A stretch of 64,000 bases of DNA from Hyphomicrobiales bacterium (GCA_013214705.1 JABSRZ010000003.1:465443-529442), one strand, 5' to 3'; positions 18,103-50,798 are shown, counted from the stretch's first letter. The notes: generated from the sequence alone by a model not told the origin. Program-made: numbers and translations.

Positions 18103-18156
18103 AAGTATCAATTCAAATGCTGGACTATATCTGCGCTCAGATGCATTTCATAATTG

Positions 18157-20517: not shown

Positions 20518-20692
20518 TGTGCCAAAAAATAAACACGCCTTTTTTCCACCGGCCCAAGATACCGGTATCTACGCGCTCAATAGCCTGTGGTTTTTCTATG
20601 GGTTTTGGCAAAGTTATATCAACGGACGTCGGTGTAAATTTCGTCTTGGTAATGAAGTTTGAACTCGATGAACCGTTTAACAGGTTATACAT

Positions 20693-21076: not shown

Positions 21077-21166
21077 AAAGGCACCCCCAAGAAGTGGCAG
21101 CCCAGACATAATATTGATTAATGCAAAGCAGACTATGAGAACATAACAGTCACTCGCACCTATCAA

Positions 21167-22186: not shown

Positions 22187-22328
22187 AACTCTTTATCCAC
22201 CCTCAGTTCAGAAATATCGCAATTGTTACGAAATGTCAATTATCTGTTACGGGCGGTCATTTTCTTGTTTTGCATACTGTTTTATCAATGACATCACAAA
22301 CAAAAACACTAAAATTTAGGAAAACCAC

Positions 22329-23881: not shown

Positions 23882-23941
23882 CGGCACTTTCCAACAAATC
23901 ATGAGTCTCCAAGGCAAAAATCTAAACATCTTTAAAGCAAT

Positions 23942-24061
23942 ATGTCAAATTATTTACCAAAGGAAATTTCAGAAAACATTTCGCAAGCCCCCAGTGCGGC
24001 CTCTGCTGTTATTGTTGGCCGTGCGGACAATGGTAGAACATCATGGAAAATAAGGGTGTGA
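23942..24061 (+). pseudogene. DUF4357 domain fragment
   Basis: A 39-codon frame whose end (APSAASAVIVGRADNGRTSW) matches the SPSAA...G(R)A.NG...W pattern of DUF4357. That domain is found at the C-terminus of the GIY-YIG protein at 43243-44163. The fragment breaks off a few bases before a copy of the dispersed short motif at 24064. Probably the debris of a lost gene. Confidence 0.5.
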
Positions 24062-24063
24062 AT

Positions 24064-24093
24064 CGTCAGCTTCTATGGAACAGGTTGGTGTGT
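24064..24093 (+). repeat. Dispersed short motif, copy 1
   Basis: Contains CTTCTATGGAACAGGTTGGT. One of six copies in the islands; see 29156, 29995, 32721, 33044 and 46084. Confidence 0.6.
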
Positions 24094-24300
24094 CTGCTTA
24101 AAATGTGTTTTGGTTCACCGCAGCGCTTTGCAGGCGTGAAAATGACAACAAGACCAGTATCTAAGCGGGCAAGAGACAAAAAATGCAGCAATCAAATGAT
24201 AGGAATAAAATTTAAAATCTGGTTGCTAATTGGTTGCTAGGACAAAATAATAAGTATTAAAAATTTATGTGACTTATTGATTTTGTTGGTGCACCAAGAC

Positions 24301-24444
24301 ATGCCTGAAACGAACTTAAATGCCTCATTTAACAGCGCAAATTCAGGTGGCAATATCGATCAATTATTTGATGAATTGTCTGATTGGAATCATGTTTTGA
24401 AAAATTCTGATCTCCAAAAAACCATCGATAAACTAGAGCCATAA
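24301..24444 (+). CDS. Small ORF or gene fragment
   Basis: 47 codons starting MPETNLNASFNSANSGG and ending LQKTIDKLEP. I do not recognise it. It may be the tail of a lost gene; there is no convincing ribosome site. It sits in a 730-base zone between the NAD(P)-binding gene and hipB that otherwise holds only remnants. Confidence 0.3.
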   Translation: MPETNLNASFNSANSGGNIDQLFDELSDWNHVLKNSDLQKTIDKLEP

Positions 24445-24610
24445 TTAACAAATATGATTAAAATCGGTAGCTTATTTGAATTTTGTCGGAAGTTTATTAG
24501 ACATTTATTCGAATCATTGCAAAATGACCTATGACTTGCCCCCCTTCATAAATAAGAGTATACTAATAATATATTATCGTTATCAGCAAATAAAACGGAA
24601 AAGTAATAAA

Positions 24611-24919
24611 ATGTTATCACTTTTAACCGCCTCTCAAGCACAAGAATCTATTGCGAAGAACCTACGCACAAAACGACTAGGGACAGGCCTAACTCAAGCT
24701 GGCCTTGCTGATCGCTCTGGGGTTAGCCTTCCATCATTGCGGCGGTTTGAGCAAAGTGGCAACATTTCTCTCGAGTCGCTCTTAAAGTTACTTATGACTT
24801 TAAACAGCCTAGAGCAATTTGTGCAATCAACAGAACCCATTTCTACTGAATTTTCTTCAATTGATGATGTGCTGAATGACAAGAAGAAAAAGACACCTAA
24901 AAAGGGTTGGCGTAAATGA
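24611..24919 (+). CDS. hipB: HipB-type antitoxin (XRE helix-turn-helix)
   Basis: A 102-residue protein with an XRE HTH (TQAGLADRSGVSLPSLRRFE) and a Lys-rich C-terminal tail. I take ATG 24611; the longer frame from 24476 adds 45 residues unlike the family. It overlaps hipA by 4 bases (ATGA). Known function of the family: binds the operon promoter and neutralises HipA. Confidence 0.88.
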   Translation: MLSLLTASQAQESIAKNLRTKRLGTGLTQAGLADRSGVSLPSLRRFEQSGNISLESLLKLLMTLNSLEQFVQSTEPISTEFSSIDDVLNDKKKKTPKKGWRK

Positions 24920-26148
24920 AACACACACCCATAACAGAAATCAAAGTCGGTCTCGAAATTACCAACAAAATTACCCCCGTCGGCAGGCTAGCCCTTAATG
25001 ATGGTAAAATTTATTTTGAATATGACCGTGATTTTTTACAATCTTCTCTAGAGTTATCGCCCTTAAAGTTGCCAAGACAAGCAGGCCTGCAAACATTTGA
25101 TAGATATTTATTCGAAGGCCTATCTGGATTATTTAATGATAGCTTGCCCGATGGTTGGGGGCGATTGTTATTAGATAGATCAGCACGGCTACAAGGCATA
25201 TTACCCGATGAATTAAGCCCACTTGATCGACTTGCGCATGTTGGCAAAATAGGAATGGGTGCACTAACCTATGAACCTGACCAGCAGACCGACACATCGA
25301 GCGGTCAAATTGATCTAGATGCTCTTGCAGTACAGACGCAAGAAGTCATGGATGGCGAGGCATCTGAAGTATTGCAAGAGCTGATATCGCTAAATGGATC
25401 ATCAGCGGGGGTGCGCCCTAAAGCGCTTATTGGTTTAGATGCTGAGCGTATAAACATTATTCATGGCACAGATACAACACAAACAGGATTTGAGCCATGG
25501 TTAGTCAAATTTTCAAATAGTGAAGATGGGTCAGATGCGGGCGCAATTGAACATATTTACGCAATCATGGCAAAAGATGCGGGACTAGAAATGATGCCAA
25601 CACATCTATTTTCTGCCCAAAAAGGCGCGGGCTATTTTGCGACAAAAAGATTTGACCGCGACAATAATAAGCGCATTCACACACATAGCGCATGCGGCCT
25701 GCTACATTCCGATTTCAGAACACCCTCGCTAGATTATGCTGATTTACTTAAACTCACGTCAATTCTAACGCGTGATGTACGAGAGGTTGAGAAGATGTTT
25801 AGATTAGCTGTTTTTAACGTCTTGGCACATAACCGTGACGACCACTCAAAGAATTTCAGCTTTTTAATGAACGAAACAGGAGAGTGGAAACTGTCACCTG
25901 CCTATGATTTAACATTCTCATCAGGACCTAGAGGCGAGCAAAGTACGATGGTTATGGGTGAAGGGAAAAACCCAGCAGATGAACAGCTAACCAAACTTGG
26001 CATCGAAGCAAATATTAACCAACAATCAATCGTTGCAATTGTCGACCAAACGCAAGCAGCACTTAGTCAATGGCGAGCATTAGCAATAAAATATAGCGTA
26101 AGCAAAGCTAATATTAAACTGATCGATGAAAGGATAAATAAGTCATAA
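24916..26148 (+). CDS. hipA: HipA-type serine/threonine kinase toxin
   Basis: A 410-residue HipA kinase. The Gly-rich autophosphorylation/ATP loop is NGSSAGVRPKAL at 160-171. The catalytic HNRDDHSKNFSF is at 305-316 and the metal-binding PAYDLTF at 328-334. All expected catalytic residues are present, so the toxin looks active. HipA proteins phosphorylate aminoacyl-tRNA synthetases; the target here is not known. It is cargo of island 1, next to its right attachment repeat, and may help stabilise the island. Confidence 0.93.
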   Translation: MKHTPITEIKVGLEITNKITPVGRLALNDGKIYFEYDRDFLQSSLELSPLKLPRQAGLQTFDRYLFEGLSGLFNDSLPDGWGRLLLDRSARLQGILPDELSPLDRLAHVGKIGMGALTYEPDQQTDTSSGQIDLDALAVQTQEVMDGEASEVLQELISLNGSSAGVRPKALIGLDAERINIIHGTDTTQTGFEPWLVKFSNSEDGSDAGAIEHIYAIMAKDAGLEMMPTHLFSAQKGAGYFATKRFDRDNNKRIHTHSACGLLHSDFRTPSLDYADLLKLTSILTRDVREVEKMFRLAVFNVLAHNRDDHSKNFSFLMNETGEWKLSPAYDLTFSSGPRGEQSTMVMGEGKNPADEQLTKLGIEANINQQSIVAIVDQTQAALSQWRALAIKYSVSKANIKLIDERINKS

Positions 26149-26270
26149 GAGCACAAATTAACACTCAAAAGGATTTCGAACCTCAATCCTTCATACAAAA
26201 CAGTAATTTAAGAAAATTATTCAAAATTACAAAAAAATTCAACAACAAATATAATCAATGTGTTGAATAA

Positions 26271-26385
26271 TGGTGCATCCGACGAGATTCGAACTCATGA
26301 CCTCTGCCTTCGGAGGGCAGCGCAAACTATTATAGTCAATAATTAATTATCCACCTAACGCTCTGATATATATAACGATAGAGCA
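26271..26385 (-). repeat. Attachment-site repeat 2
   Basis: 26271-26323 matches the tRNA-Arg(CCG) 3' half with one acceptor-stem mismatch (GCATCC for GCACCC). The following 60 bases carry the shared element flank (CCACCTAACGCTCTGATATA). It separates islands 1 and 2. Confidence 0.87.
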
Positions 26386-29190: not shown

Positions 29191-29617
29191 ACAAGAACAA
29201 GACAGACATCGAACTGGCAAAATAGTGTTAGAAGTATTGGCGCATTAATAGAGAATAGGTGCTAATTATATTATGTAGCATATCCGCACATAAGACTGAG
29301 TTAAGGGGCACAATGCCTGCAGGTCTAATTATTCTGACGATTTGTGACCGCAACAGCTTAAAAGTCATTCATTAGTTGGGTGGTTTTTAACCCAATCAGA
29401 GGCCATTTGTTGTGCCTTTTCAATTTGGGATGGTGTCATTTTTTAGCGATTGCATCCCTGACTTAAATCCAGCTGAGCAAATTCATAAAAACAATCATCC
29501 TAGTTTGGTTGCTTAATGTTGCCTGTAATATGACGAAAGAAGAATTATGGTGATTGCTATGTGATTGTTAGCGGGTTTAATGGTGTTTAGGTTAATGCGT
29601 CAAACCATTGCTGAGAT
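29191..29617. other. Intergenic, right part of island 2
   Basis: About 430 bases without an intact gene. It holds a possible Sel1-protein tail (29365-29439). Confidence 0.4.
29365..29439 (-). pseudogene. Possible C-terminal tail of a Sel1-repeat protein
   Basis: 24 codons reading MTPSQIEKAQQMASDWVKNH and ending in TGA. The TPxQIxxAQ-x(2)-A-x-(D/E)W pattern is common at the C-terminus of Sel1/TPR-like proteins. Upstream codons contain a stop. A fragment at best. Confidence 0.35.
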
Positions 29618-29728
29618 TGGTGCACCCGACGAGATTCGAACTCATGACCTCTGCCTTCGGAGGGCAGCTTAAGCTATTACAGACATTAAATACATATCCA
29701 CCTAACACTCTGATGTATATGGTCATGT
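29618..29728 (-). repeat. Attachment-site repeat 3
   Basis: 29618-29668 is identical to the tRNA-Arg(CCG) 3' half, followed by the same element flank as repeats 1 and 2. It is the left end of island 3, whose right end is the intact tRNA gene at 50722. Confidence 0.88.
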
Positions 29729-34090: not shown

Positions 34091-35128
34091 TTAATTCCGA
34101 AGTGTGTTTAACATGAATGCTATAAGTTCATCATCACCATTATTACAATGGTGGTGGATCATCTTAAATGTAGCTAATTTTAGAAAGGCTTTATCGTTTA
34201 GGCCTTCAACCTCTAAAAATAAAATGTAATTATCCAATTGTGTGATGAGAGTACCTATATCCGTTGGAGAAGAATCTCGACAGTAAGCTACGAAAGCTGT
34301 AATCCAATTTGAATAATTGACATCTAGCACATCATCTTTCCAGCGCCTACGTATATCAAAAACATCGTCCCATGTTGTCACCTTGTCATTGTCGCCAATC
34401 AATTGAATATCCCAATCAGGCCGCATAGCGTCTACTTGTAATGGGGCACTATTAATTAACGACAATTTAGCAGTTTCATTTAGATAAGGGTCAAATGCAC
34501 TGCGAGTATTATCTGCACCATCTTTTAAGATATTATTTGCTCCTTTATACCTCTCATTACACTTCATGCCCATTGGGGCTAAGTTGCGTAAATTTGACCC
34601 CGCAAAGGGATAGAGCGATATAGGTATATAATGGTCTAGGTCTTCTCTTTTGCTTTTAGGGGAATCAAATTCTTCACAACCACAAAAAGGGCAAACCTTA
34701 GCGCTCAAGCTATCATATATAGCTTTATAATGAGTGTCTCTAATGCCAAAGTCAGTAAGCTTTTTGAAAGCATATTTCATTAATTCAGCTAATTTCTCTA
34801 GCGCCATCGCGTGAAAGTCAGATGCACAGTCACAAGCGGCGTTTGCAGCAAGTAATTGCTCAATTTCATTCTGTTTTGTTAGAGCATTTTCTAAGACATC
34901 TATTTCATCGTCACATAAATCGCTAACCACCTCGAAATAGCCTTTTAATTTTTTATTCAAACCAAAATTAGGACGGACAGTTTCTTTATGAATAGCTGGC
35001 ACTGAGTTCATCCAATCAGGGCGCACAAGATCATTTTTAACGGCATTATGAATGGCGCTTATCATGTCCATTACACAATCATGGAACCAATTGTCACTCG
35101 TCGCATTTAAAGGATATGTTGCCAGCAT
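34091..35128 (-). CDS. HNH endonuclease (PtuB-like partner of the AAA ATPase)
   Basis: A 345-residue protein with an HNH nuclease at about 140-205. CPFCG at 146-150 is a zinc pair, DLDHYIPISLYP carries the catalytic His166, NLRNLAPM carries the Asn, and C190 is in KCNERYKGANN. The N-terminal 140 residues are not recognised. Its ATG directly follows the ATPase stop (TAAATG), indicating coupled translation. It is the last gene of the defence operon. ATPase plus HNH pairs are known as Septu (PtuA/PtuB) and in some retron systems; equivalence here is inference. Confidence 0.82.
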   Translation of the reverse strand: MLATYPLNATSDNWFHDCVMDMISAIHNAVKNDLVRPDWMNSVPAIHKETVRPNFGLNKKLKGYFEVVSDLCDDEIDVLENALTKQNEIEQLLAANAACDCASDFHAMALEKLAELMKYAFKKLTDFGIRDTHYKAIYDSLSAKVCPFCGCEEFDSPKSKREDLDHYIPISLYPFAGSNLRNLAPMGMKCNERYKGANNILKDGADNTRSAFDPYLNETAKLSLINSAPLQVDAMRPDWDIQLIGDNDKVTTWDDVFDIRRRWKDDVLDVNYSNWITAFVAYCRDSSPTDIGTLITQLDNYILFLEVEGLNDKAFLKLATFKMIHHHCNNGDDELIAFMLNTLRN

Positions 35129-36715
35129 TTAGTTAACAACCTCACTTTTCAGTTTAGTTAACCGATGTATCAAGTGAGCGCGTTCTACCGAATTGGCTAT
35201 ATACTCCAAGGCTACTTCAATTTCTTTTGCGGATCCCGATTTCATTAGTTTATCGATTTCATTGAAGGCAGCAGTTGAAATGGGAGGGTTAATTTCAAAG
35301 CAATCTTCTAATATACGATCAAACCTTGCCCCATATGTTTGATTTTCAGGGTGAGTGACTTTCAGAATGCCTTTATCTTTCCTGAAGACAAACACATTTT
35401 CCTTCTTCATGTCTGACGGCACAAAAGGTGAGTGTGTCGTTAGAATACAGTCCTGATATATTTTCTTTTTAGGCATCAACTCACGAAGAGCTCGGATAAA
35501 TTCCACGCGCCATTTTGGGTTAAAATGTGACTCAGGCTCATCAAGTAAGAAGAGTATGTTTTCACCACGCAAGATGTTGAACATACTGAATATTTGTGCT
35601 CGTTGATGTTCACCGTCTGACAAGGCAATATAATCGCCTGAGAGTTTCTTTTGTTTGGATTTGAGCTTTATGCCTTCAATACGAAAGACGAAATCATCTT
35701 CGCTTGGTCGTGGTAGCTTTGCTGCATAGCTGCCATTTTTAATGTTGCTCAGGTATTTGTTGCGAGAGGCACGCTTTAATATCAAGTCATTAAGCATTGA
35801 TAGTTTGTGGAATGTTGAAAAGACATCATTAGCACCCCCTTGCCAATATAGGTCAATGCCCTCTCTTGTGGCATCAGATACTAAGAAATCAAATGTATAG
35901 CTTTCAGTTTCTTCTTCATAAAGATAACAGGTAGAGCAGCTTTGAAGGTAATCAAGAACTGCCTCAAGCTCCATTGTTAGCTGAACGCCCTTACGCTTTG
36001 AATTTTTACTTCGAGCTCCGGGGGCAGCACCATGAGCCAATTGCACGATAATACGAAATGAAAGCAAATCGGCAAAATTTGTCAACTTCAAGAATGGTCT
36101 TAATTGTGAGATTGAATTACCCAACAAGTTAGCGACAAAAGCTTCTTGATGAGTATCATGATCAATATAAATTAGCCGACCGTCTTGCACTTCCTTTGTC
36201 ATATACTTGTTATCGAATGCAGCTTGTCTCACTGCTTCGGCATATGCCGCCCGACTTACATAGAATGGCGCACTTAGTGTCTCATTACCACCAGACGTGT
36301 ATCCAATGATAGCACTTGGATATAGTTGAAACTCTACTAAATATTCGCCGGAAATTATTTCGTAATGTCCTTTAGAATTGATTTTGAAATCCCAAGTTAG
36401 GGAGCGGCCTTTCATTTTACGACCAACGAAAACATCCATGACTTTCTTTTGTTTTTTACAATAAACCGAATATTCAACCTCAAACTGACAGGTTTGATTT
36501 AGCTCGTCGCGCTCTGCCCCTTGATCAAGGTGATGAAGAATACTTTGAAATATCTCTGCCGTAGCTTGCAAGAATTGGGATTTGCCAGAACCGTTGGGGC
36601 CCACAAGGCAGATCGGGTCAAAATCTGAACTGCGATCAGGAAAGCGAACATCTAAACCTTTTAACAGACCATCACATGAGTTGGTTGATATGATGTGAAC
36701 ACGCTTTAGCTTCAT
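35129..36715 (-). CDS. AAA/ABC-type ATPase associated with restriction system (PtuA-like)
   Basis: A 528-residue SMC/ABC-like ATPase. Walker A GPNGSGKS is at 39-46, the ABC signature variant LSDGEHQR at 365-372, Walker B LFLLDEPES at 388-396 and the H-loop TTHS at 426-429. The arrangement fits the restriction-associated AAA family (TIGR04435-like) and PtuA. It overlaps hsdS by four bases and abuts the HNH gene, so it is built into the restriction operon. It probably acts as a regulator or sensor for the HNH nuclease. Confidence 0.88.
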   Translation of the reverse strand: MKLKRVHIISTNSCDGLLKGLDVRFPDRSSDFDPICLVGPNGSGKSQFLQATAEIFQSILHHLDQGAERDELNQTCQFEVEYSVYCKKQKKVMDVFVGRKMKGRSLTWDFKINSKGHYEIISGEYLVEFQLYPSAIIGYTSGGNETLSAPFYVSRAAYAEAVRQAAFDNKYMTKEVQDGRLIYIDHDTHQEAFVANLLGNSISQLRPFLKLTNFADLLSFRIIVQLAHGAAPGARSKNSKRKGVQLTMELEAVLDYLQSCSTCYLYEEETESYTFDFLVSDATREGIDLYWQGGANDVFSTFHKLSMLNDLILKRASRNKYLSNIKNGSYAAKLPRPSEDDFVFRIEGIKLKSKQKKLSGDYIALSDGEHQRAQIFSMFNILRGENILFLLDEPESHFNPKWRVEFIRALRELMPKKKIYQDCILTTHSPFVPSDMKKENVFVFRKDKGILKVTHPENQTYGARFDRILEDCFEINPPISTAAFNEIDKLMKSGSAKEIEVALEYIANSVERAHLIHRLTKLKSEVVN

Positions 36716-38361
36716 GCAGATACCTTCTTGAACATAATGCCTTTCTGAGATCCATCAAATACTTGTTGTATAGGTGGATTTTTCATTTGAAGAATTTCAA
36801 ACAGGGCTACTTTAAAGTCATCATAAACCGTACCAGCAACAGCTTGTAATTCGTCTAACTGCAAAGTATCTCCCGGAAAAGTTTCTATTCCGTGGATAAG
36901 CTTTTCGATAACCTGTTCCACGGGTTTAGAAATAGCCCCAGCACTAAAAGAAAGTGGCAATTGGCGACTGCTCTTTTCAATAACCCTCTTTTTCGCTGCT
37001 GCTTTTTTCACTTTAGGCTTCTTCTTTGCTTCCTTGGGCTTGGTAGCCTTTTCTTCACGTTCAGCTTTGATGCGTTTTAGCAGCTCGCTTGCGGGCTCAT
37101 CACTAGGGTCTTGTGGCACTAAACCGCCACGGAAAGCTTTTGCGAGAATGGATTGGTTGAGTTTAGGCTGAAGTTCATATGCTTCGTCATATGCTTTTTT
37201 TAGCTTAGCGATTTTTTGAAATGCTTTGTCTAGGGCTCCAACAATTTTGGTTTGAATTTCTAACGACGGCACTTTTACATTAAATGATCTTAGCCCCTTC
37301 AGAGGGACAGTGACTTGAGCTGTTCCTGTAGCAACCGCCTTAGCTTGTTCTTTTATGTCTTGTGTATCTAACAAATAAACAAGGAATTTACTAAGCACAC
37401 GATCTTTATTTGGTTTTATAATTGCTATATGTCGCTGGAATACGAAGGGTTTCTCCTCCAGCACTAAGGCAGGAATTGCTATAGATCCTGTCACTGAGAA
37501 AAGTATGTCGTCAATCTCAGCTCTTCGTATCGGTTTTAGATTGTCGTAATATTCTTGAGGAACATACCGGGTAGCTTTCTCTAACTTGATTTTACCAGTG
37601 TTCATTGCAGAGATAGTGATAAACGGTATGCCTGTTTCTGCTTTAGGCGGAGCTTGATGGTCTCCATCTGAAATAGAATTGCAAATATCAGCTAATTCCA
37701 CATCATCCCATGAACTTTGATCATCTTTGGTGAGGTCACCACGGAATGCGGCGGCGAGGATGGATTGGCGGTATTGATCAAGTAAGGCTGGAATAGTGTC
37801 CAGTGCTTCTTTCGCTTTCCCACTCCTTGCAAACAAGGCATCAACCTTATCCACTATCCGCTTTTGTTCATTTTGTGCAGGAAGAGGAAGAAGAATATCA
37901 TTAATTGTTTTTGAAGATAAGTGTTTAACCGTTACAGAAGATGTATGAGCATTTATTGCTGCCAAATAGCCGGGTAAAGTATAACCAAGAAACCTTTTGT
38001 CGTAAAAGTTCTCATTAGGAGTAATCTTAGCAACTCGTTGATTTAATAATGCCTTCTTTCCCTTCCAATAAGCTGAATTAAAATCGCCGTCCATTCCCAC
38101 CAAAAGATCGTTGGAATTTATTACGTAATTTTCCTCAATAGGACCTTCGTAAAACGTTTTAGTTTTGCCAGAAACAACGTCTCTTATCCTTATAAGTGGA
38201 AAACCATTCTCCTCCTTAGAGAAATATTTAGACTTAAAAGCATAGCCATTCAATACTTCCGATACACAGGAAAGCTTAATGCGCTGCCATGAACGGTGCG
38301 AAGACAATAAGCCACCTTTGTTCTCTTCAATTAGTTCAGGGAAATCTTTTATAAAGCTCAC
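36712..38361 (-). CDS. hsdS: Type I restriction-modification specificity subunit
   Basis: A 549-residue HsdS with two target-recognition domains (about 20-180 and 220-390), each ending in the conserved helical spacer with LDTIPALLDQYRQSILAAAF and QPKLNQSILAKAFRGGL. After residue 410 come a Lys/Ala-rich linker and an extra about 75-residue C-terminal domain (QVIEKLIHGIETFPGD onward), seen in some EcoEI-like HsdS. The bipartite target sequence cannot be read from this. It overlaps hsdM and the ATPase gene by four bases each. Confidence 0.93.
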   Translation of the reverse strand: MSFIKDFPELIEENKGGLLSSHRSWQRIKLSCVSEVLNGYAFKSKYFSKEENGFPLIRIRDVVSGKTKTFYEGPIEENYVINSNDLLVGMDGDFNSAYWKGKKALLNQRVAKITPNENFYDKRFLGYTLPGYLAAINAHTSSVTVKHLSSKTINDILLPLPAQNEQKRIVDKVDALFARSGKAKEALDTIPALLDQYRQSILAAAFRGDLTKDDQSSWDDVELADICNSISDGDHQAPPKAETGIPFITISAMNTGKIKLEKATRYVPQEYYDNLKPIRRAEIDDILFSVTGSIAIPALVLEEKPFVFQRHIAIIKPNKDRVLSKFLVYLLDTQDIKEQAKAVATGTAQVTVPLKGLRSFNVKVPSLEIQTKIVGALDKAFQKIAKLKKAYDEAYELQPKLNQSILAKAFRGGLVPQDPSDEPASELLKRIKAEREEKATKPKEAKKKPKVKKAAAKKRVIEKSSRQLPLSFSAGAISKPVEQVIEKLIHGIETFPGDTLQLDELQAVAGTVYDDFKVALFEILQMKNPPIQQVFDGSQKGIMFKKVSA

Positions 38362-39818
38362 GACTTAACTCCGGATGCATCATCAAGGATGGATTGAAGG
38401 GCTTCCATTTCTGTTAAGGCCGTTTGCAGGTTTCCCATGATTTGAGTGGCAATGACGTCAGGTTCAGGCAAGTCAGATTGGTCTGTGACGTTTTCGTCAC
38501 GTAGCCAACTAATATCTAGATTATCATTCCGTTTTTTAATCTCTGCGCGGGTAAATTTCCTGAAACGGCCTTGCTCGCCTTCATCCTTGCGTTTTGCTTT
38601 GCCATATGGGTCTTCACCGTAAGCATCGACAAATTCCTCAAAGTGCTTCTTAGTCAATGGGGTTCGTTTCCCAAAGCTAGGCATATTGGTGCGTAGGTCA
38701 TAGACCCATGTTTCTTTTGTATTGCCTTTGTCAGTTTTGCCACGCGTAAAAAAGAGCACATTGGTTTTAACGCCTTGAGCATAGAAAATACCTGTGGGCA
38801 GGCGCAATATAGTATGCAAATCACATTTATCCATTAAGTCTTCACGGATTTGTCGTCCCATATTATCTTCAAACAATACGTTATCAGGTATAACAACTGC
38901 CGCACGGCCGCCGGGCTTAAGGCCTCGATAGATATGCTGCATAAAGGCAAGCTGTTTATTTGATGTTTCAAAAGTGAAATCATCACGGCTTGGTTTTCCG
39001 CCACCTTTGCTTGATCCGAAAGGAGGATTAGCAAGAATAAGGTCAGCTTTTGGAAGTCTCTCTCCGGCAGGAGACAAGGTATCATCAAGGGCGATGACAT
39101 CTTCTTCGATGCCGTGCAGCATCATATTCATTAGGCCAAGGCGGTGCGCACGGGGCACAAATTCCATGCCGTAGATGGCGCGTTTATACTGAAAATCTTT
39201 CTGGCTATCACTCAAGTCAAAAAAGTCTTGCTCGTCTCTTAGATGATTATTCGCAGCAATTAAAAATCCGCCCGTTCCACAAGCTGGGTCTTGGATAACT
39301 TCACCGATTTGCGGCTTCATCAGCTCGACCATCATGTTAATCAGTGGGCGTGGTGTAAAATATTGTCCTGCACCTTTTTTGCCCTCACTTGCGGATTTTT
39401 CAAGAAGCCCTTCAAAGGCATCACCCATGGCATCACGGTCTTCAGAAAACCAATCTATCCTCTTAATTTCTGTAATAATATTTTGCAGGGTGATTGGCTT
39501 ACTGATCGCAGTGCCTGCATTAGCAAAAATCTTCTGGATAAGAATGGATTTACTTTCACCCAGTTTAAGTAAGGATTTTTTATAATGCGCGAGGAGCTCA
39601 ATACCTTTTTTACTTTCAAGGTCAGTCCAGCGGTAGCCTTCTGGTATCAGAATATCAAAATCACGGTCAGAATGAATGCCAGACTTTGAAACTTCATGAG
39701 CCATTTTGAAGAATAAAATATAGGTCAATTCATCAAGGTACTCGTCATATGAACGGCCTTCATCACGAAGAATATCGCAGTAGCCCCAAAGTTTTGAAAC
39801 AATATCTGTAGCATTCAT
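38358..39818 (-). CDS. hsdM: Type I restriction-modification DNA methyltransferase subunit
   Basis: A 486-residue N6-adenine methyltransferase. There is an N-terminal HsdM helical domain, then GQYFTPRPLI at 151-160, SAM motif I DPACGTGG at 177-184 and catalytic motif IV NPPF at 264-267. All key residues are present. It protects host DNA and, with HsdS and HsdR, forms the restriction complex. A gap of 37 bases separates it from hsdR. Confidence 0.96.
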   Translation of the reverse strand: MNATDIVSKLWGYCDILRDEGRSYDEYLDELTYILFFKMAHEVSKSGIHSDRDFDILIPEGYRWTDLESKKGIELLAHYKKSLLKLGESKSILIQKIFANAGTAISKPITLQNIITEIKRIDWFSEDRDAMGDAFEGLLEKSASEGKKGAGQYFTPRPLINMMVELMKPQIGEVIQDPACGTGGFLIAANNHLRDEQDFFDLSDSQKDFQYKRAIYGMEFVPRAHRLGLMNMMLHGIEEDVIALDDTLSPAGERLPKADLILANPPFGSSKGGGKPSRDDFTFETSNKQLAFMQHIYRGLKPGGRAAVVIPDNVLFEDNMGRQIREDLMDKCDLHTILRLPTGIFYAQGVKTNVLFFTRGKTDKGNTKETWVYDLRTNMPSFGKRTPLTKKHFEEFVDAYGEDPYGKAKRKDEGEQGRFRKFTRAEIKKRNDNLDISWLRDENVTDQSDLPEPDVIATQIMGNLQTALTEMEALQSILDDASGVKS

Positions 39819-39855
39819 TGTTTTGTTTTCTTTTCGATTTAAAATTTAATTATTA

Positions 39856-42800
39856 TTAAGCAGTCTTATGCCATATCGCGTCAGTAATATCATCTAGAAT
39901 TTTACTTAATCGACCTTCAAATACTTTATTAAGACGATCATAACCGCCCCGCCTTGCAAACTCACCGCTGTTTAGCGCAGATTTGTCGACAATCACTTCT
40001 TTCTTAAGCTGCTTACCTATGCGGGTTAGCCATTGCTTTTGAACGGCGGTATATTCACCCGCGCTCATAATGGATTTTAGCGCCATATCAACCCGCTGTT
40101 CGTAAGGCAGTAGAGGATCACCAATTGCAGCTTGGCGAATAAAGCCAATAATATTGGCGGCAATGTCTTCATTCTTTGTATCCCGCCACGCTGCACGTAA
40201 ATCTTGTTCACGGAAGCCTTCACTTTCCAGCTGCAATTGAAGTCCTTTCAACTGTTGACGGGTTAGGTCTTTTGGTCGCTGCGTCACGGCCAACAAGGCA
40301 GGTAATTTATTTTTGTTGTCTTCAATATAGACTTTGAAACTATCCAAATAGTCTTCAGGTTTTTCTGCGTCACCGTACCCAGTCCGTACATCAAGCAATT
40401 CATCATTATGTTCGGAGATAGCAGTGAAGGGATTAAAACTTCGGCCTTTAGTGTCGAGCAACACAATGATATGTGAATTATCTTTAAACCATTCAGCTAC
40501 TTCAGTCACGGGGGTATCTTTTACCCAGTCCATAAAATCATCAAGTGGCGTTTTCGTGATGAGTTCAATTTTTTCAATTGTCTCATCCTTATAGCGCCTG
40601 CTCGCACGATGTAATTTAGCGGTTAGTTCATCCTTTATTGTATCGCGGGCTTTTTCATCTATGACCTTTTCCAGTCCTTCAACCAGATGCGCAAAGGTGG
40701 TTTTGGGATTTGCCGCAACAGGCTTCATTTCCGTCACTTTTTTAAGGCGATTGTATATATCTACAGCATCAAATATTCTGAAAGTTTCTTTGCCAATCTC
40801 ATCGCATAGGCGCGTTGCACGGCCCAGCATCTGCTCAAAAAGGATACGGCTGTTTACTTGCCTTAGAAAGACAAGGTTACAGATTTTTGGAACATCTATT
40901 CCAGTGGTCAATAGGTCAACTGTAACGGCGATATTGGGTAGGGTTTCGTTCTTGTAGCGGCGAATAAGCTGTGACGGTTTATCAGATTTTCCTGTAATTT
41001 TTGCAATCGCATTATCTTCTATTTCGCCGTAAGTTGCCTGCATGGCCTCTTTTAATTTTTGAACTACAAGGTCAGCATGTTTGTCATTCACACAAAATAT
41101 AAGCGTTTTTGCCTGCATACTTGGATCAATATAATCGGCAAGAGCTTCGCAAATTACCCTGTTGAAATCAGGTGTTATGACACGTTTATTGAAAGCTTCA
41201 ATATCCATTTTTAGGTTATCAGGAAGGTGTACGGTATCTATTTCACCTGTAGTGTTGTCGATAACCTCTACTTCTTCTCCAGCTTCCCATTCGATACCAT
41301 TTTCGGCAAGCTTAGTGATTAGGCGTACTGGTGCTTCATGGTCGGTTAACCACCCGTCGATCACAGCCTCGCGGTAGGTGTACCTATATATTGGTGAGCC
41401 AAAGATATCCGTTGTATGTAAGGCAGGTGTCGCAGTTAAACCAATTTTGACCGCATCAAAATGCTCAATAACGCGGCGGTACTTAGATACATAATCATCT
41501 TGATCTCTGAAAGCGAATTCGCTGTCACCTAGTTCTTTATCAAGTAAGTAACCACGATGACATTCATCAACAATAATACAGTCATATTGGTCAACGGTTG
41601 GGACTGCACTACTATCATCATTGTACATGATGCGCTTAACAAAGCTTTGCACAGTTGCTATTTGAATACGCGTGTCACTTTCAACTACCCCATCGCCAAG
41701 TTCTTTAACGCCAAAGATATTTGCAAAAGTTTGCAGGTTTTCCATCTGCGTGCCTTGGAAGTCCTCTCCCGTTTGCTCTCCTAATGCGGAACGGTCTACA
41801 AGAAAGAGAATGCGTCTGAAACGATTGGTGTTTAAGAGGCGATACGCCATGGCTAAACAGGTTTTTGTTTTCCCTGTTCCCGTTGCCATTGCCAGTAAAA
41901 TCTCACGTTGACCGTTGGATATAGCTTCCTCAGATTTTAGAATGGCTTTTTTCTGATAATCCCGAAGTGTGAAACCATAATCGAAACCTTCAGTCTCAAG
42001 CTTTTCTGCTGCCTTTTGCTCATCTTGATCTAAGAGTTTTTCAATACCTTCAGGGGAATACCAGCCCGTTAAAGCGCGACGAAGGTTTGTCGGCTTACGA
42101 AGATCACAAAACCAAATACCGCTTGCAGTTTCTAATTGCTTTAAATACGGGCGGCCATTTGTGGAGAATGCCAGAGGTACATAATAAGAGGTTTTATCGC
42201 CATCTGACCAAGGGGCTTCATCGCTGATAAAATCAGCTCCTTTACTTTGAAACCCTTTTGAATACCTTTTGGCCTGATCTATAGCACCAGAAACATCAAG
42301 GCGTTTCCGTTTGGCTTCAACTGTAGCAACGGCTTTTAAACCAATGAATAAAACATAATCAGAAGGGCCTGTTTCTGTCGGCCATTCAGCTATTGCAATA
42401 TTCTTACCTTTTTGAGGGCGAACACCTTTGCTGTATTTGATGTTGTCGCTATTTACTTCCCATCCAGCATCACGTAATTGCCCATCGATAATTCTGCGAG
42501 TGTCAGCTTCATCAAGATCAATTGCTTCAGCGAATTTATTGGCTGATGAAACAAGTTGCGATATGTCTTTTGGAGATGCTTTTTCAGATTGCTCTTGCAA
42601 TGCTTCCAGCTTGACTTGTAACTCTGATGTTGCAGCTTCGGCTTCTTCATTTAATTTTAATAAAGACTGCCTTTCTTCTTCAACACTTAAGCGTAAACGA
42701 GCTTCTTTTGCTTGTAACCTCGATGCTCTCTCTTTCTCAGACAGAGCTTGCTCAAGTTTTTGTTGCAGCTCAGAAATTTCTAGCCTTAAAGCTTCATCTT

Positions 42801-43236
42801 GCAGGGTTTCTTTCTCTGGTGGTGAGAAAGGGGTGGCAGTGAAGTCGCGATCATTTCCAAACGACCGATGGTACCAAATGGCTAATTTATGGGCTATTTT
42901 TAGGTTAGTAAGGGCAGTCCCATGATCATCCTTTAATGCATGAACCGCCTGGTTTCCTGATTTCCTAAGTTGATGGAACAAGTCAATAATAACTTTGTTG
43001 ATGCCAGATGTTTGACCAAGCCTAGTTAAAACTGAAATTTGCCTCGTATCATCAGCTATATAAACACCGAGTTTCGCGGCAGTTTCCGAAGCGAGTAGTT
43101 CTCCGTATTGGCGTAATTTCATAGTACTGGTATTTGGATCTTCAGCAAAATAACGCTCAGCCAATGTGCCGAGCCTAGCCAATTGAGGGGCGTGACCATC
43201 TAAGAAATTAAAATTGGGTGATGTATCTTGTGTCAT
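39856..43236 (-). CDS. hsdR: Type I restriction endonuclease subunit (EcoEI-like)
   Basis: A 1126-residue translocase-nuclease. In order: a DUF4145-like domain (about 20-130), a long coiled coil (about 145-220), a PD-(D/E)xK nuclease with D293 and VEAKR at 306-310, SF2 helicase motifs ATGTGKT (451-457) and DECH (557-560), TATPALHTTDIFG, the helicase C domain, and an EcoEI-type C-terminal domain. Full length and intact. It starts 6 bases after the GIY-YIG stop, so it is in the same transcript. Confidence 0.95.
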   Translation of the reverse strand: MTQDTSPNFNFLDGHAPQLARLGTLAERYFAEDPNTSTMKLRQYGELLASETAAKLGVYIADDTRQISVLTRLGQTSGINKVIIDLFHQLRKSGNQAVHALKDDHGTALTNLKIAHKLAIWYHRSFGNDRDFTATPFSPPEKETLQDEALRLEISELQQKLEQALSEKERASRLQAKEARLRLSVEEERQSLLKLNEEAEAATSELQVKLEALQEQSEKASPKDISQLVSSANKFAEAIDLDEADTRRIIDGQLRDAGWEVNSDNIKYSKGVRPQKGKNIAIAEWPTETGPSDYVLFIGLKAVATVEAKRKRLDVSGAIDQAKRYSKGFQSKGADFISDEAPWSDGDKTSYYVPLAFSTNGRPYLKQLETASGIWFCDLRKPTNLRRALTGWYSPEGIEKLLDQDEQKAAEKLETEGFDYGFTLRDYQKKAILKSEEAISNGQREILLAMATGTGKTKTCLAMAYRLLNTNRFRRILFLVDRSALGEQTGEDFQGTQMENLQTFANIFGVKELGDGVVESDTRIQIATVQSFVKRIMYNDDSSAVPTVDQYDCIIVDECHRGYLLDKELGDSEFAFRDQDDYVSKYRRVIEHFDAVKIGLTATPALHTTDIFGSPIYRYTYREAVIDGWLTDHEAPVRLITKLAENGIEWEAGEEVEVIDNTTGEIDTVHLPDNLKMDIEAFNKRVITPDFNRVICEALADYIDPSMQAKTLIFCVNDKHADLVVQKLKEAMQATYGEIEDNAIAKITGKSDKPSQLIRRYKNETLPNIAVTVDLLTTGIDVPKICNLVFLRQVNSRILFEQMLGRATRLCDEIGKETFRIFDAVDIYNRLKKVTEMKPVAANPKTTFAHLVEGLEKVIDEKARDTIKDELTAKLHRASRRYKDETIEKIELITKTPLDDFMDWVKDTPVTEVAEWFKDNSHIIVLLDTKGRSFNPFTAISEHNDELLDVRTGYGDAEKPEDYLDSFKVYIEDNKNKLPALLAVTQRPKDLTRQQLKGLQLQLESEGFREQDLRAAWRDTKNEDIAANIIGFIRQAAIGDPLLPYEQRVDMALKSIMSAGEYTAVQKQWLTRIGKQLKKEVIVDKSALNSGEFARRGGYDRLNKVFEGRLSKILDDITDAIWHKTA

Positions 43237-43242
43237 CTCTAC

Positions 43243-44163
43243 TTATTCAACCTTAATGCTTTCATCTTCAGAAGATGCAAGCTGCTCTGCTTCCCAATCT
43301 TTATAGGACTTGCGGGTTCCTTTAACTATCCAATAACGGGGGCCATTTGTGGCTCGACCGTTTAACATCGCCCCTGCAGCACTTGGACTTGAAAATGCAT
43401 AGTTCTCCGTAAAAGTAGCATGGTTGCCATCAATTGAGAGTATTCCTTTTTGAACCATTTTTTCAAATAGTTGACGGTAGTTATGTGTTAATGAACCGCC
43501 CCATTCTTTTCTGCCGATTGATCCTTTGAGGACAATGAATTCACCCCCTCTAAGAATAGCCTCACCCTTTACCCCATGTTTTGGTGTTCTCATTTCAAAC
43601 TGAACATCTTCATTAATATCAGAGCGTTCGGGTTGTTGTTTCTGCAACGTAGAGCGAGTTTCCTTAAGGAAACAATCAATACGCAGTGCAGGAAGAACTA
43701 ATAAAATATTTTCAAGAAAACCTTCCATATTAGCTATTGCAGCTTCACTTAATGACGGTAATACAGGGATAGTCCCATTTTCAAGAGGTATGCGATCTGC
43801 GTCTTGGGCAATTGCTACTAATCGACTTTCAAGGTATCGAACATGGGCTTTGTTTAATTCGTCTCCTGTATCCGTAATCATTACGACGGACGTCCACCAA
43901 TCTTTAGTTCGTGCATGGTTTTTGATGCGCTGGCGGATTTCTTCTGTTTCTCCAATGTACGCAAGTGCGCCCTCTTCATTTTCACCAAATAAGATGTATA
44001 CACCAGAGCGTGAAGCTTCTTTACGTTTCAGAGCTTCACTAATTTGATTACGGCTGGTCATTAATACATGACCTGTCCACTGAAAAGGTACAGTAGCTGT
44101 CAGCATCCCATCTGGTTTGCCGTTTATAAAGTACAATTCTAGTGATCTGCCCGAAGTAGCCAT
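43243..44163 (-). CDS. GIY-YIG nuclease domain protein with DUF4357
   Basis: A 306-residue protein, first gene of the defence operon. The GIY-YIG signature is GVYIL at 54-58 and YIG at 69-71, followed by RQRIKNH. A DUF4357 domain lies at about 245-295 (SSPSAAGAMLNGRATNG then W). Start ATG 44163 has a GGGAGA site. The N-terminal GIY-YIG is degenerate in parts, so nuclease activity is not certain. Its place ahead of hsdR suggests a role in the restriction system, for example as an accessory nuclease or control factor. Confidence 0.85.
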   Translation of the reverse strand: MATSGRSLELYFINGKPDGMLTATVPFQWTGHVLMTSRNQISEALKRKEASRSGVYILFGENEEGALAYIGETEEIRQRIKNHARTKDWWTSVVMITDTGDELNKAHVRYLESRLVAIAQDADRIPLENGTIPVLPSLSEAAIANMEGFLENILLVLPALRIDCFLKETRSTLQKQQPERSDINEDVQFEMRTPKHGVKGEAILRGGEFIVLKGSIGRKEWGGSLTHNYRQLFEKMVQKGILSIDGNHATFTENYAFSSPSAAGAMLNGRATNGPRYWIVKGTRKSYKDWEAEQLASSEDESIKVE

Positions 44164-46164: not shown

Positions 46165-46647
46165 CTAAGCTCCGCCCTTCTTTCTATTCTCGCGTTTCCA
46201 CAATGGTTGCAGGTTTTGGTAGTTGCATAACTTGATAATGTTAACACTATCATTCGCCGCAGACAGTGGGATAATGTGATCCACTTCCCATTGCCCATAT
46301 TTCTCCCAGCACATACCTTCTTTAAATTGGGCCTCAATATATTGCCCTAACTTAACCTGATTGCATGCTAGCGCTTTAAGTGGGCTGTAGATTCCATTTA
46401 AAGCCTGCCCAGCACGCCTCTGTACGTTTCGGAACATTCGGTAAGTAGGGTCATTTACCGCCCTCCTCGACTCGTTAAAACGAGCCTTTTCAGCATTGCA
46501 AGTAACGCATTGCCGATTAGACACATATCGGTTTGCGAAATGACCATATTTACACGCTTTGCCAGTATTATAAAAGGCCATGCGATAGTCGATGGCCTGC
46601 TCTTTAGTGATGATAATATTTGTTGGGATTGAGCTATGCAGCGACAT
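46165..46647 (-). CDS. HNH endonuclease (zinc-finger type)
   Basis: A 160-residue HNH protein. An N-terminal CKYGHFANRYVSNRQCVTC forms a zinc finger. The C-terminal WEVDHIIPLSAAN then LCNYQNLQPLWKRENRKKG is a complete HNH core. It overlaps the upstream helicase gene by 14 bases, so the two are translated together. Such small HNH proteins occur in phages and mobile elements. Confidence 0.85.
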   Translation of the reverse strand: MSLHSSIPTNIIITKEQAIDYRMAFYNTGKACKYGHFANRYVSNRQCVTCNAEKARFNESRRAVNDPTYRMFRNVQRRAGQALNGIYSPLKALACNQVKLGQYIEAQFKEGMCWEKYGQWEVDHIIPLSAANDSVNIIKLCNYQNLQPLWKRENRKKGGA

Positions 46648-48580
46648 TGAAAATCTCCTCCAAGTTTATGTGCTCGGCACGCTCAAACCATTGCCTAGCA
46701 CCCTTCCCAGAGCCTACTGAATAGTATGACCAACCACGAACAGCCAAACTAGAAATCAATTGCTCATCGTTATCTTTGAGCCGTTTTTTAAAACGGTCAA
46801 AACTGCTTTTGGAAATACCCAAATCCTCTTTGAGGTCTTTCAACAATATCGGCTCTTTGGAAACGCTTTTGTTCAAATAATCCAACACCTGAACAACACA
46901 TCTATTGCCACCTCTATTGGTTGTAACATCGCCATATTTCAACTCCCCAAACTGAGTGTTCGGCATTTCTGATCGAATTGCATCCAAAATGAAATTGGCT
47001 TCGTTTTCAGCTCCTAATGGAAGATAGATGTTTGTTGGAGGACAAAGACCACTAGAATTTACAGAAGTACGAATTTGGCATCTGTTCAACGCTTGGATAA
47101 TCGAGGAGATCATATGACCCTGCTTTATTCTCCTCACAACACTTTTTCTATCACCGGCATTGTCATTTGAAGACTGCAACCATGCAGGAGATTGTTGACC
47201 TGCCAATGCGAAATATTCCAACAATGATGAGAAGTTATCTCTGTAGGGCAAACCAAATAGAAATAAAGAGCTCGTATTTATCCAATCATTTTTGCCATCA
47301 ATAGCACCCCATGTACCAAAAGATACTGAGTGCACATTATACTTCAACTTCTTGACATCTGTTTCAACAGATTTCGGGCAGACGATAAGCAAATCTTCAG
47401 ACGAGGAACCAGATTGCTTAATAGCGCCAGTCAGACATTTTGAATGTTGCGCGAAGTTCTTCCGCAGTTGCGTTTTACCTACAGTGTTGCCATTCGAAGA
47501 GAACACAGTAAGATTAGAATAATCCCTAGATCCTTCAATACGTGGTGATATTTTAACGCGTTCAACCATAAGTTCATAAAGCGGGAACAGGCTTGCAGTC
47601 GCATCCAATATCAAAATATTTGAATGTTCATCTTTCGGCATCAAAGAAACAGATGTACCAATTTTCAGGCGGTTGCCGGATCGCTCTACTAAGCAATAAC
47701 TGGTTGAAATCCGATGAAGGGTTTCTAGGACATCTTTGATAATGCGAACTAGTTTTGCTCTCGCAACTCCATCTTCGCCAATAAGCAATACATGGTGTAA
47801 TTTAGAACTAGAAACCTTCGCAGACAATCCCATAAAATCACATTCTATTTGATGGTCTTTAAAATCAAAAACTGTGAGGGTGCCGCAATCTTTCAATTTA
47901 TCTATTAGCACTTGTATAAAATGCATTTCATTTGAAAAATCCTTATCATTCTCAGCAGAATATTCGTCACCAATAGTATCAGAGATTAAAGCGTGCACTT
48001 GCCTTAATGACGATAGATCAGTTACCCAGCTTTTCGTAAAGCCATATGATTCATCGATAATTGTTAAATCTCGTCTAAAGCAACTATAGGTCATAAGCTG
48101 GTTATCCAACTTTGCAAAAGGACAGCCATCATATTGTTCCAATAATAAGTTTTCATACTTTGCTGCTGTAATTACTAAAACAGGATAATGGCTAAGGCTA
48201 TTAGCTTCAGATTTAGTATCTGAATTAAATGCGAATGCAATCGGTTCTGCTCTTTCACAATTAATCTCATCTGCAAGTTTACGACCTTGCTGAATTGTTC
48301 TGCAAACAACTAGAATGCCATTTGAATATTTACCTTGCAGAAAAGCATCTGTTTCTGTTGGTAGACAATTGCTAAGATACTTCGCAAGGCAATGTGTCTT
48401 ACCTGTGCCAGTAGACATTTGTGAGACAACAATACCGTTCTTTCCAGAAGCTACCATAGTATCAAGTTGAGTTGCCAGTTGTTGCCAGTTTGCAACGAGG
48501 GATGTGTTTGGCATAAAACCAAAGTTTCTATTGTAGCTATCTGATAAATCATCTAGCAGGTTATATTTAGAATCTTGCAT
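46634..48580 (-). CDS. DEAD/SF2-like helicase with C-terminal winged helix
   Basis: A 648-residue protein. Walker A STGTGKT is at 56-62, a DExH-like IIDES at 174-178, LILDATASLF near 335, LLIVCPKS near 405, and the arginine-finger-type ALNRCQIRT near 505. The last about 100 residues look like a winged helix (LLKDLKEDLGISKSSFDRFK). It resembles helicases of integrative and satellite elements, so element replication is the first guess; a defence role with the HNH partner is the alternative. A GAAAGGAAA site precedes ATG. Confidence 0.72.
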   Translation of the reverse strand: MQDSKYNLLDDLSDSYNRNFGFMPNTSLVANWQQLATQLDTMVASGKNGIVVSQMSTGTGKTHCLAKYLSNCLPTETDAFLQGKYSNGILVVCRTIQQGRKLADEINCERAEPIAFAFNSDTKSEANSLSHYPVLVITAAKYENLLLEQYDGCPFAKLDNQLMTYSCFRRDLTIIDESYGFTKSWVTDLSSLRQVHALISDTIGDEYSAENDKDFSNEMHFIQVLIDKLKDCGTLTVFDFKDHQIECDFMGLSAKVSSSKLHHVLLIGEDGVARAKLVRIIKDVLETLHRISTSYCLVERSGNRLKIGTSVSLMPKDEHSNILILDATASLFPLYELMVERVKISPRIEGSRDYSNLTVFSSNGNTVGKTQLRKNFAQHSKCLTGAIKQSGSSSEDLLIVCPKSVETDVKKLKYNVHSVSFGTWGAIDGKNDWINTSSLFLFGLPYRDNFSSLLEYFALAGQQSPAWLQSSNDNAGDRKSVVRRIKQGHMISSIIQALNRCQIRTSVNSSGLCPPTNIYLPLGAENEANFILDAIRSEMPNTQFGELKYGDVTTNRGGNRCVVQVLDYLNKSVSKEPILLKDLKEDLGISKSSFDRFKKRLKDNDEQLISSLAVRGWSYYSVGSGKGARQWFERAEHINLEEIFNVAA

Positions 48581-49610: not shown

Positions 49611-50618
49611 TTATCCAAGTTTATCTGCAATGTTTTCAGGTTTTAAATGGGTGTATTTAAACAGCATTCTGGGGTCTCTATGACCGCTTATGAGAGCTAC
49701 TTCTGGCACTGACAGGCCAAGTTCAAACAACCTACTAATTGCCTCGTGGCGCAGGTCGTGAAACCTTAATTCTAGTATTGTGGGAATTTTCTTAGCTGCT
49801 CTTTGTTTGCATCTTTCCCATGCCAATCTAAATGCATTTCCAGTGATCTCGAATAACCTTTGGTTATCACTACAGAGCTGCTTTAGCCTAGCTTTGAAAA
49901 TTGACAGCGATGTTGATGATAACGGAATTGTTCTAGTGAACCCATTCTTTGTATGAGGAATTTTCAGCACTCTAGCCTTAAAGTCCAGATCGCACTTTCT
50001 AACATTCAATAGCTCACCGCGACGCATACCAGTTTCAATGGCAAGCAGTATGCATTTGGTAAGCCAATCATCCTGACACTTCAAATTCACTTTTATTAGT
50101 GTTTCTAGTTCATCATCTTCTAGTCTTCGGGTACGTGATTCTGGCTGTCGAGGTTTACGAACTTTAACCAATGGATTTTCATGAAGTGGTATATCCCATT
50201 CATTACGAGCGGTTTCAAATATAGCCCTCAGTAGCCCTAGTTCGCGTATAACAGTGCCAGCACTAACTTGTTTGTTGCGCATGTCTCTATGCTCTACAAA
50301 TGTATATGGAGTTATTTGAATGAGGGTAAGCTTCGCCCAATCGTATTTAAGGAATACATTCAGCCTTAAAACTTCCGCATCTTTGCCTCTGTGGTGAATT
50401 GAAACATTATCTCTAAACCGCTCTATCAGATCACCTACAGTCAGCACCTTCAAAATACTGGTGTTAACTGGCAAGACGCGTTTATCCATATCACTTTCAA
50501 TCAGGCGCACCCATGCCTGAGCATCACTTTTTGATATAAATGAATTACATTGTGATTTATGCCCAACACGCCTTACTTGTGCGTGCCATTTATTATTCCG
50601 TTTTCTTATACTCGCCAT
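49611..50618 (-). CDS. int: Tyrosine recombinase / integrase of the tRNA-Arg islands
   Basis: A 335-residue phage-type integrase. An N-terminal arm-binding region is followed by a core-binding domain (about 60-150) and a catalytic domain with R199 (GMRRGEL), K224, H287 and R290 (FHDLRHEA), H313 (SGHRDP) and nucleophile Y322 (LFKYTH). All catalytic residues are present, so it is probably active. It points away from the intact tRNA-Arg(CCG) gene 104 bases away, the standard layout for integration into a tRNA 3' end. Confidence 0.95.
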   Translation of the reverse strand: MASIRKRNNKWHAQVRRVGHKSQCNSFISKSDAQAWVRLIESDMDKRVLPVNTSILKVLTVGDLIERFRDNVSIHHRGKDAEVLRLNVFLKYDWAKLTLIQITPYTFVEHRDMRNKQVSAGTVIRELGLLRAIFETARNEWDIPLHENPLVKVRKPRQPESRTRRLEDDELETLIKVNLKCQDDWLTKCILLAIETGMRRGELLNVRKCDLDFKARVLKIPHTKNGFTRTIPLSSTSLSIFKARLKQLCSDNQRLFEITGNAFRLAWERCKQRAAKKIPTILELRFHDLRHEAISRLFELGLSVPEVALISGHRDPRMLFKYTHLKPENIADKLG

Positions 50619-50655: not shown

Positions 50656-50721
50656 AACATATTTATTGGGAATAATAGCTTTTAGCCTAAACCATATCTC
50701 ATTGATATATTTAGGTAATTT

Positions 50722-50798
<77 letters not shown>

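What the first reader, a model, noticed from the sequence alone, without database searches (positions are those of the whole stretch)
34091..44163. Composite defence operon: GIY-YIG/DUF4357, HsdR, HsdM, HsdS, AAA ATPase, HNH
Six genes on one strand with 4-base overlaps or gaps of at most 37 bases. A full type I restriction system is fused at the operon level to a PtuA/PtuB-like ATPase-HNH pair and headed by a GIY-YIG protein. Restriction-associated AAA proteins are known, but translational coupling of all three nuclease types suggests one integrated system, perhaps with the ATPase-HNH acting as backup when restriction fails.
Basis: partly seen in the sequence, partly recalled or inferred. Interest (0 to 1): 0.8.

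Follow-up and report, generated by a model that had tools for sequence, protein, structure and literature searches.

The report
Type I restriction operon carrying PtuAB-like pair
A bacterial DNA-restriction operon carries, directly behind its DNA-recognition gene, an ATPase–nuclease pair related to the Septu anti-phage system; across several phyla that pair stays with the modification and recognition genes even where the restriction motor gene is missing, so it looks like a second, separately triggered weapon rather than part of one six-gene machine.

Summary
In detail: six intact minus-strand genes with overlaps or gaps of at most 37 bp: GIY-YIG/DUF4357, HsdR, HsdM, HsdS, PtuA-like ATPase, HNH nuclease. 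The six-gene "integrated system" is not conserved. In about 34 related loci (Pseudomonadota, Bacteroidota, Bacillota, Cyanobacteriota, Melainabacteria) the constant unit is HsdM-HsdS-ATPase-HNH, nearly always translationally coupled (S-ATPase overlap or abut in 27 of 32 junctions). HsdR is optional: present in 18, absent in 12–13, with at least six changes on the ATPase tree; some deeply diverged R-less lineages keep intact motifs. The GIY-YIG gene is a separate type I accessory, usually found without the pair. The ATPase belongs to TIGR04435 ("restriction system-associated AAA family ATPase") and its nearest solved structures are PtuA; NCBI had thus already noted the association, but I found no paper on function and the HNH partner is annotated "hypothetical". 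Best reading: HsdMS gates a PtuAB-like effector, as RT/msDNA gates PtuAB in retron Eco7 and a type Ic enzyme gates PrrC. Whether the trigger is unmodified DNA or anti-restriction attack is untested. The operon sits in an island integrated in tRNA-Arg(CCG). New variant of a known kind.

The parts
43243..44163 (-). GIY-YIG + DUF4357 protein (PADLOC candidate PDC-S14), optional accessory of type I operons
   Evidence: in type I operons without ATPase-HNH in 6 of 8 plasmid loci
39856..43236 (-). HsdR, EcoEI-type R subunit (1126 aa), PD-ExK/Walker A/DECH intact
   Evidence: (NF008521, 1566 bits)
38358..39818 (-). HsdM, N6-adenine methyltransferase (486 aa), DPACGTGG and NPPF motifs intact
36712..38361 (-). 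HsdS, two target-recognition domains (549 aa, GTG start), overlaps hsdM by 4 bp
35129..36715 (-). PtuA-like AAA/ABC ATPase (528 aa), TIGR04435; Walker A, SDGEHQ signature, Walker B and H-loop intact; overlaps hsdS by 4 bp
34091..35128 (-). HNH nuclease (345 aa), diverged PtuB-like, CPFCG..DHY..N..NL..CN..K; abuts the ATPase gene
49611..50618 (-). Tyrosine integrase of the island that carries the operon
   Evidence: Phage_integrase 5e-26
50720..50772 (.). att copy in the 3' part of tRNA-Arg(CCG) (tRNA 50722-50798)
29617..29668 (.). Direct repeat (52 bp) of the tRNA-Arg 3' end = far end of the island with the operon; further copies at 17990-18042 and 26279-26323

Best explanation
A type I restriction-modification operon carrying a conserved four-gene module: HsdM, HsdS, a PtuA-like ATPase and an HNH nuclease. 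The HsdMS methyltransferase most likely acts as sensor and silencer of the ATPase-HNH pair. The pair would assemble PtuAB-style, stay inactive while HsdMS is in its normal state on methylated host DNA, and be switched on when HsdMS meets unmodified invading DNA or is bound by a phage anti-restriction protein; the HNH then cuts nucleic acid (DNA or tRNA). HsdR, where present, is a parallel conventional restriction arm. The GIY-YIG/DUF4357 protein is a separate accessory. Shown here: gene content, conservation, coupling, intact motifs, optional HsdR, PtuA fold match. Inferred: physical contact with HsdMS, silencing, trigger, substrate.
For: M-S-ATPase-HNH in that order in nearly all ATPase relatives collected at E<=1e-20; S-ATPase overlap or abut in 27 of 32 junctions, ATPase-HNH within 25 bp in 32 of 32. 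HsdR absent from 12-13 loci; no HsdR in the R-less plasmids or in genomes G375, G623, G930 (only a 157-aa fragment in G091); in five other genomes the HsdRs found have their own M and S, whose M is only 23-30% identical to the linked M. R presence changes at least 6 times on the ATPase tree and the embedded ATPases group apart from stand-alone PtuA (91/89). HsdM keeps NPPF in 26 of 26 loci, R-less ones included. An R-less Bacteroidia clade about 50% identical in the ATPase keeps intact genes. ATPase and HNH distances correlate best (r 0.81). Structural best hits all PtuA. The HNH partner in R-less Pseudoalteromonas is full-length PtuB (2e-106). Precedent for interchangeable gating: in retron Eco7 RT plus msrmsd neutralise PtuAB toxicity (PMC11555353); a type Ic enzyme silences PrrC (PMC3874168).
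Against: No direct evidence of interaction, toxicity or defence. The loci were collected with an ATPase profile built from restriction-linked proteins. HsdR absence is not significantly commoner than among similar HsdM loci without the pair (12 of 30 against 3 of 18 lacking R, Fisher p = 0.12). One locus (L073) has S-ATPase-HNH without HsdM (the latter had no positive control). In the window's own clade HsdR is usually present, and the two R-less members are ambiguous (L038, with an HsdR on another contig) or have a split ATPase frame (L080). The HNH structure model was poor and gave no fold match.
Confidence: 0.6

Rival explanations
1. PrrC-like guard: the ATPase-HNH pair is a latent suicide nuclease sequestered by the type I complex and released only when a phage anti-restriction protein disables that complex.
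For: PrrC, also an ABC-type ATPase nuclease embedded in a type I operon, is silenced by the R-M protein and activated by a T4 anti-restriction peptide (PMC3874168; PMC3874165). PtuAB of retron Eco7 is toxic unless neutralised by its partner (PMC11555353).
Against: In R-less lineages there is no restriction to guard, yet HsdM catalytic motifs are kept, which suggests that methylation itself matters. A decoy role of HsdMS is not excluded.
Confidence: 0.3
2. Methylation-directed second restriction enzyme: HsdMS recruits the ATPase-HNH complex to unmodified target sites, so that the pair substitutes for or adds to HsdR.
For: R-less M-S-ATPase-HNH lineages with intact HsdM; S specificity varies while the ATPase stays similar (L079/L179: S 38%, ATPase 85%, HNH 84%), as expected of an effector that reads any target through HsdS.
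Against: PtuAB relatives that were studied cleave tRNA (Eco7, Septu EcB88) or nicked DNA (Septu ATCC25922, as cited in PMC11555353), not sites chosen by a methyltransferase. HsdR is present beside the pair in 18 loci.
Confidence: 0.35
3. An ordinary Septu-like pair parked in a type I operon for co-expression or co-mobilisation, working independently of HsdMS.
For: Stand-alone PtuAB pairs are common, including one in the same genome (L167); the operon lies on a mobile island.
Against: In relatives of this ATPase the pair is behind S in the same order, with overlapping frames, across several phyla; random parking would give varied positions and neighbours.
Confidence: 0.2
4. One six-gene machine with GIY-YIG, HsdR, ATPase and HNH all needed.
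For: Tight operon in the window; the same six families in Sphingobium pKN1, in another order and with one more gene.
Against: GIY-YIG in 2 of about 34 loci and common without the pair; HsdR missing in 12-13 loci.
Confidence: 0.04

Closest known systems
TIGR04435 restrict_AAA_1 loci (NCBIfam 'restriction system-associated AAA family ATPase')
   Same: The window ATPase passes the curated cut-off; same neighbourhood (HsdM, HsdS)
   Different: The family names the ATPase only; the partner HNH, the fixed M-S-ATPase-HNH order and the optional HsdR were not found described
Septu (PtuA-PtuB)
   Same: ATPase + HNH adjacent genes; full-length PtuA1 model match; best fold matches are PtuA of Septu and of retron I-A; relatives L037, L085, L086, L088 have the PtuB-type partner
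   Different: Not stand-alone in this family; the window HNH is too diverged for PtuB models (3e-4) and matches PDC-M62B/M01B better, themselves near-duplicates of Septu calls (PMC11811056)
Retron Eco7/Ec78 (RT-msDNA gating PtuAB)
   Same: PtuAB-type effector placed under another defence sensor
   Different: Sensor here would be HsdMS; no reverse transcriptase gene in the operon
EcoprrI/PrrC
   Same: ABC-ATPase nuclease embedded in a type I operon
   Different: PrrC is one protein with an anticodon nuclease domain; here separate ATPase and HNH genes, and hosts with EcoEI-type or another, shorter HsdR type rather than type IC only
RloA/RloB of Campylobacter hsd loci
   Same: Two overlapping genes inside a type I locus (PMC2928727)
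   Different: Not compared by sequence here; the similarity is of arrangement only. M-S-AAA-x-R loci L166 and L173 may be of that sort (x has no Pfam hit)

Membership tests
Type I restriction-modification system | HsdR with PD-ExK nuclease and DExH translocase | tested here: met
Type I restriction-modification system | HsdM with SAM motif and NPPF | tested here: met
Type I restriction-modification system | HsdS with two target-recognition domains | tested here: met
TIGR04435 | Score above curated cut-off (300 bits) | tested here: met
   386 bits
Septu (PtuAB) | PtuA-type ATPase | tested here: met
   PtuA1 PDLC00293 1.7e-41 over residues 1-488; best fold hits are PtuA; below the 500-bit cut-off of the retron PtuA equivalog NF041760
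Septu (PtuAB) | PtuB-type HNH partner | tested here: inconclusive
   HNH motif conserved, PtuB models only 3e-4; fold model too poor
Septu (PtuAB) | Two-gene stand-alone operon | tested here: not met
   with S, and nearly always M, in this family
PrrC/EcoprrI | Single ABC-ATPase protein with C-terminal anticodon nuclease | tested here: not met
   separate ATPase and HNH genes
PrrC/EcoprrI | Nuclease silenced by the linked type I enzyme | not testable with these tools
   needs a bench assay
Retron I-A (Eco7) | Reverse transcriptase and msr-msd | tested here: not met
   all six ORFs of the operon assigned, none an RT; no msr-msd search was run
PDC-S14 (GIY-YIG/DUF4357) | Full-length profile match | tested here: met
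   8.6e-110

The most novel reading that the evidence does not exclude
HsdM-HsdS-ATPase-HNH is a self-sufficient restriction-modification type in which a PtuAB-like ATPase/HNH complex, not HsdR, is the effector triggered by HsdMS at unmodified sites; the window's operon is a double-armed version with both effectors on one methyltransferase.
Probability: 0.3. Interest if true: 0.78.

Novelty: new variant of a known kind. Interest (0 to 1): 0.5.

Why it matters
If HsdMS gates a PtuAB-like effector, the PtuAB nuclease becomes a plug-in effector with at least three inputs (alone, retron, type I methyltransferase), and some annotated orphan HsdMS pairs might be complete defence systems whose effector is labelled 'hypothetical protein'. 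It also offers a PrrC-like second layer that could be tested with standard anti-restriction proteins.

Tried and rejected
Viral-contig and phage searches for the ATPase found nothing. Full-text searches for TIGR04435, its name and Septu+HsdMS found no paper on the arrangement. Idea that absence of HsdR is specially enriched beside the pair: difference from control HsdM loci not significant (p = 0.12). Idea that variable ATPase segments track HsdS domain 2 or the HNH: suggestive in three sequences, whole-protein comparison of more sequences showed no simple tracking. HNH fold prediction failed. The six-gene unit was rejected as a conserved entity. Promoter and terminator scans gave counts no higher than shuffles.

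Full report
Observation. Six intact minus-strand ORFs lie at 34091-44163. In transcription order: GIY-YIG/DUF4357 (PDC-S14), HsdR (EcoEI-type; PRK11448 equivalog), HsdM, HsdS (GTG start), an AAA/ABC ATPase and an HNH protein.

The ATPase scores 386 bits against TIGR04435 'restriction system-associated AAA family ATPase' (cut-off 300) and matches a full-length PtuA1 model at 1.7e-41. Its predicted structure (pTM 0.70) finds PtuA of Septu and retron I-A as best PDB matches (E 3e-14, TM-scores about 0.4, so the fold family is clear but the superposition is partial). The HNH protein has no Pfam hit, but across 24 homologues CxxC, DH, N..NL and CN are invariant or nearly so. Its structure model was too poor to use.

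Conservation. ATPase relatives were collected from plasmids, GTDB contigs and whole-genome searches that together covered 1,993 genomes, and their neighbourhoods were annotated with profiles built from the anchors. HsdS, ATPase and HNH are on the same strand and in this order throughout; HsdM precedes S except in L080 (M after the HNH), L073 (no M found) and two loci cut by contig ends (L041, L078). L044 has two extra genes between S and ATPase. L042 (Niabella) is broken by frameshifts. S-ATPase overlap or abut in 27 of 32 loci and ATPase-HNH lie within 25 bp in 32 of 32. The lineages are Pseudomonadota (alpha, beta/Burkholderiales, gamma), Bacteroidota, Bacillota, Cyanobacteriota and Melainabacteria. 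The system is rare: above the cut-off in 1 of 289 genomes of the window's class (the window itself), 8 of 395 genomes of the Pedobacter class and 3 of 300 of the Ramlibacter order, the centre genomes included. Weaker PtuA-like hits are mostly stand-alone ATPase-HNH pairs, plus two M-S-ATPase-x-R loci, so the link to M-S is a property of this branch (support 91/89, not fully settled) and not of PtuA at large.

HsdR is optional. It is adjacent in 18 loci and absent in 12-13. The R-less plasmids of Priestia, Hymenobacter and Pseudoalteromonas hold no HsdR (their chromosomes were not searched), and genomes G375, G623 and G930 have none by two searches (G091 only a fragment). In G949, G374, G1077, G334 and G1008 the HsdRs examined lie beside their own M and S, whose M is 23-30% identical to the ATPase-linked M, so sharing in trans is unlikely. 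Stutzerimonas (L038) is ambiguous: an EcoEI-type HsdR sits on another contig. On the ATPase tree HsdR presence changes at least 6 times. An R-less Bacteroidia clade, about 50% identical in the ATPase, keeps all motifs, and NPPF is intact in every HsdM examined. Caution: R absence is not significantly commoner than in 18 control HsdM loci without the pair (p = 0.12).

GIY-YIG is a separate accessory. It is with the pair only in the window and in Sphingobium pKN1 (there between M and S). Relatives occur on 50 plasmids, and in 6 of 8 loci inspected it sits in a type I operon lacking the pair. The window operon thus stacks two recurrent type I add-ons.

Evolution rates. Among near relatives R and M stay at about 80-95% identity while S falls to 35-70% and HNH to 37-84%; ATPase similarity does not follow S similarity. 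ATPase and HNH distances correlate best of the pairs tested among M, S, ATPase and HNH (Mantel r 0.81; R with M reaches 0.96 where R is present). So the pair travels together and works with changing target specificities, and the HNH evolves fast.

Mechanism. PtuAB is a toxic effector that another module can hold in check: in retron Eco7 the RT with msrmsd neutralises it, and its action depletes tRNA-Tyr; Septu EcB88 cleaves tRNA-Tyr, and another Septu was reported to cut nicked DNA (PMC11555353, PMC13096335). PrrC, likewise an ABC-ATPase nuclease within a type I operon, is silenced by the R-M enzyme and freed by an anti-restriction peptide (PMC3874168, PMC3874165). With M-S as the constant neighbours and R optional, the simplest reading is that HsdMS is the sensor/silencer of the pair. 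Whether unmodified DNA or anti-restriction proteins trigger it, and what the HNH cuts, is inference.

Setting. The operon lies between a 52-bp repeat of the tRNA-Arg(CCG) 3' end at 29617 and the tRNA gene at 50722-50798, with a tyrosine integrase at 49611-50618; further att-like copies at 26279 and 17990 suggest a tandem array of islands. The same genome carries a stand-alone PtuAB-like pair on another contig (L167).

Verdict. The association was implicit in an NCBI family name; the module, its partner nuclease and its independence of HsdR appear undescribed in the papers searched, which leave out most subscription journals and bioRxiv.

Noticed in passing
window 17990-18042, 26279-26323, 29617-29668, 50720-50772: Three direct repeats of the tRNA-Arg(CCG) 3' end plus the tRNA gene itself: apparently a tandem array of integrated islands; the stretch 17990-26279 carries a HipA-like toxin gene with an HTH partner (24476-26148).
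   Followed up: partly
L167 (own genome G000:C44, about 182.7-185.1 kb): A stand-alone PtuAB-like pair (PDC-M01/PtuA1 models, E down to 1e-200) in the same genome as the embedded pair.
   Followed up: partly
L166 and L173: Type I operons with order M-S-AAA-x-R, where x (209-234 aa) has no Pfam hit: another ATPase + unknown partner pair in a type I operon.
   Followed up: partly
L136 (G047): Type I operon R - AbiJ_NTD4 protein - OLD-like/AAA_15 ATPase - S - M: yet another ATPase accessory inside a type I locus.
   Followed up: partly
L073 (G930): S-ATPase-HNH directly behind a tyrosine recombinase and no HsdM found: possible invertible specificity cassette or relic.
   Followed up: partly
L036:9893-10747 (Sinorhizobium): A homologue of the HNH protein without ATPase, HsdM or HsdS nearby.
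   Followed up: no
window 46165-48580: Small HNH protein (160 aa) overlapping a 648-aa ResIII-type helicase in the same island; no PADLOC match for either.
   Followed up: partly
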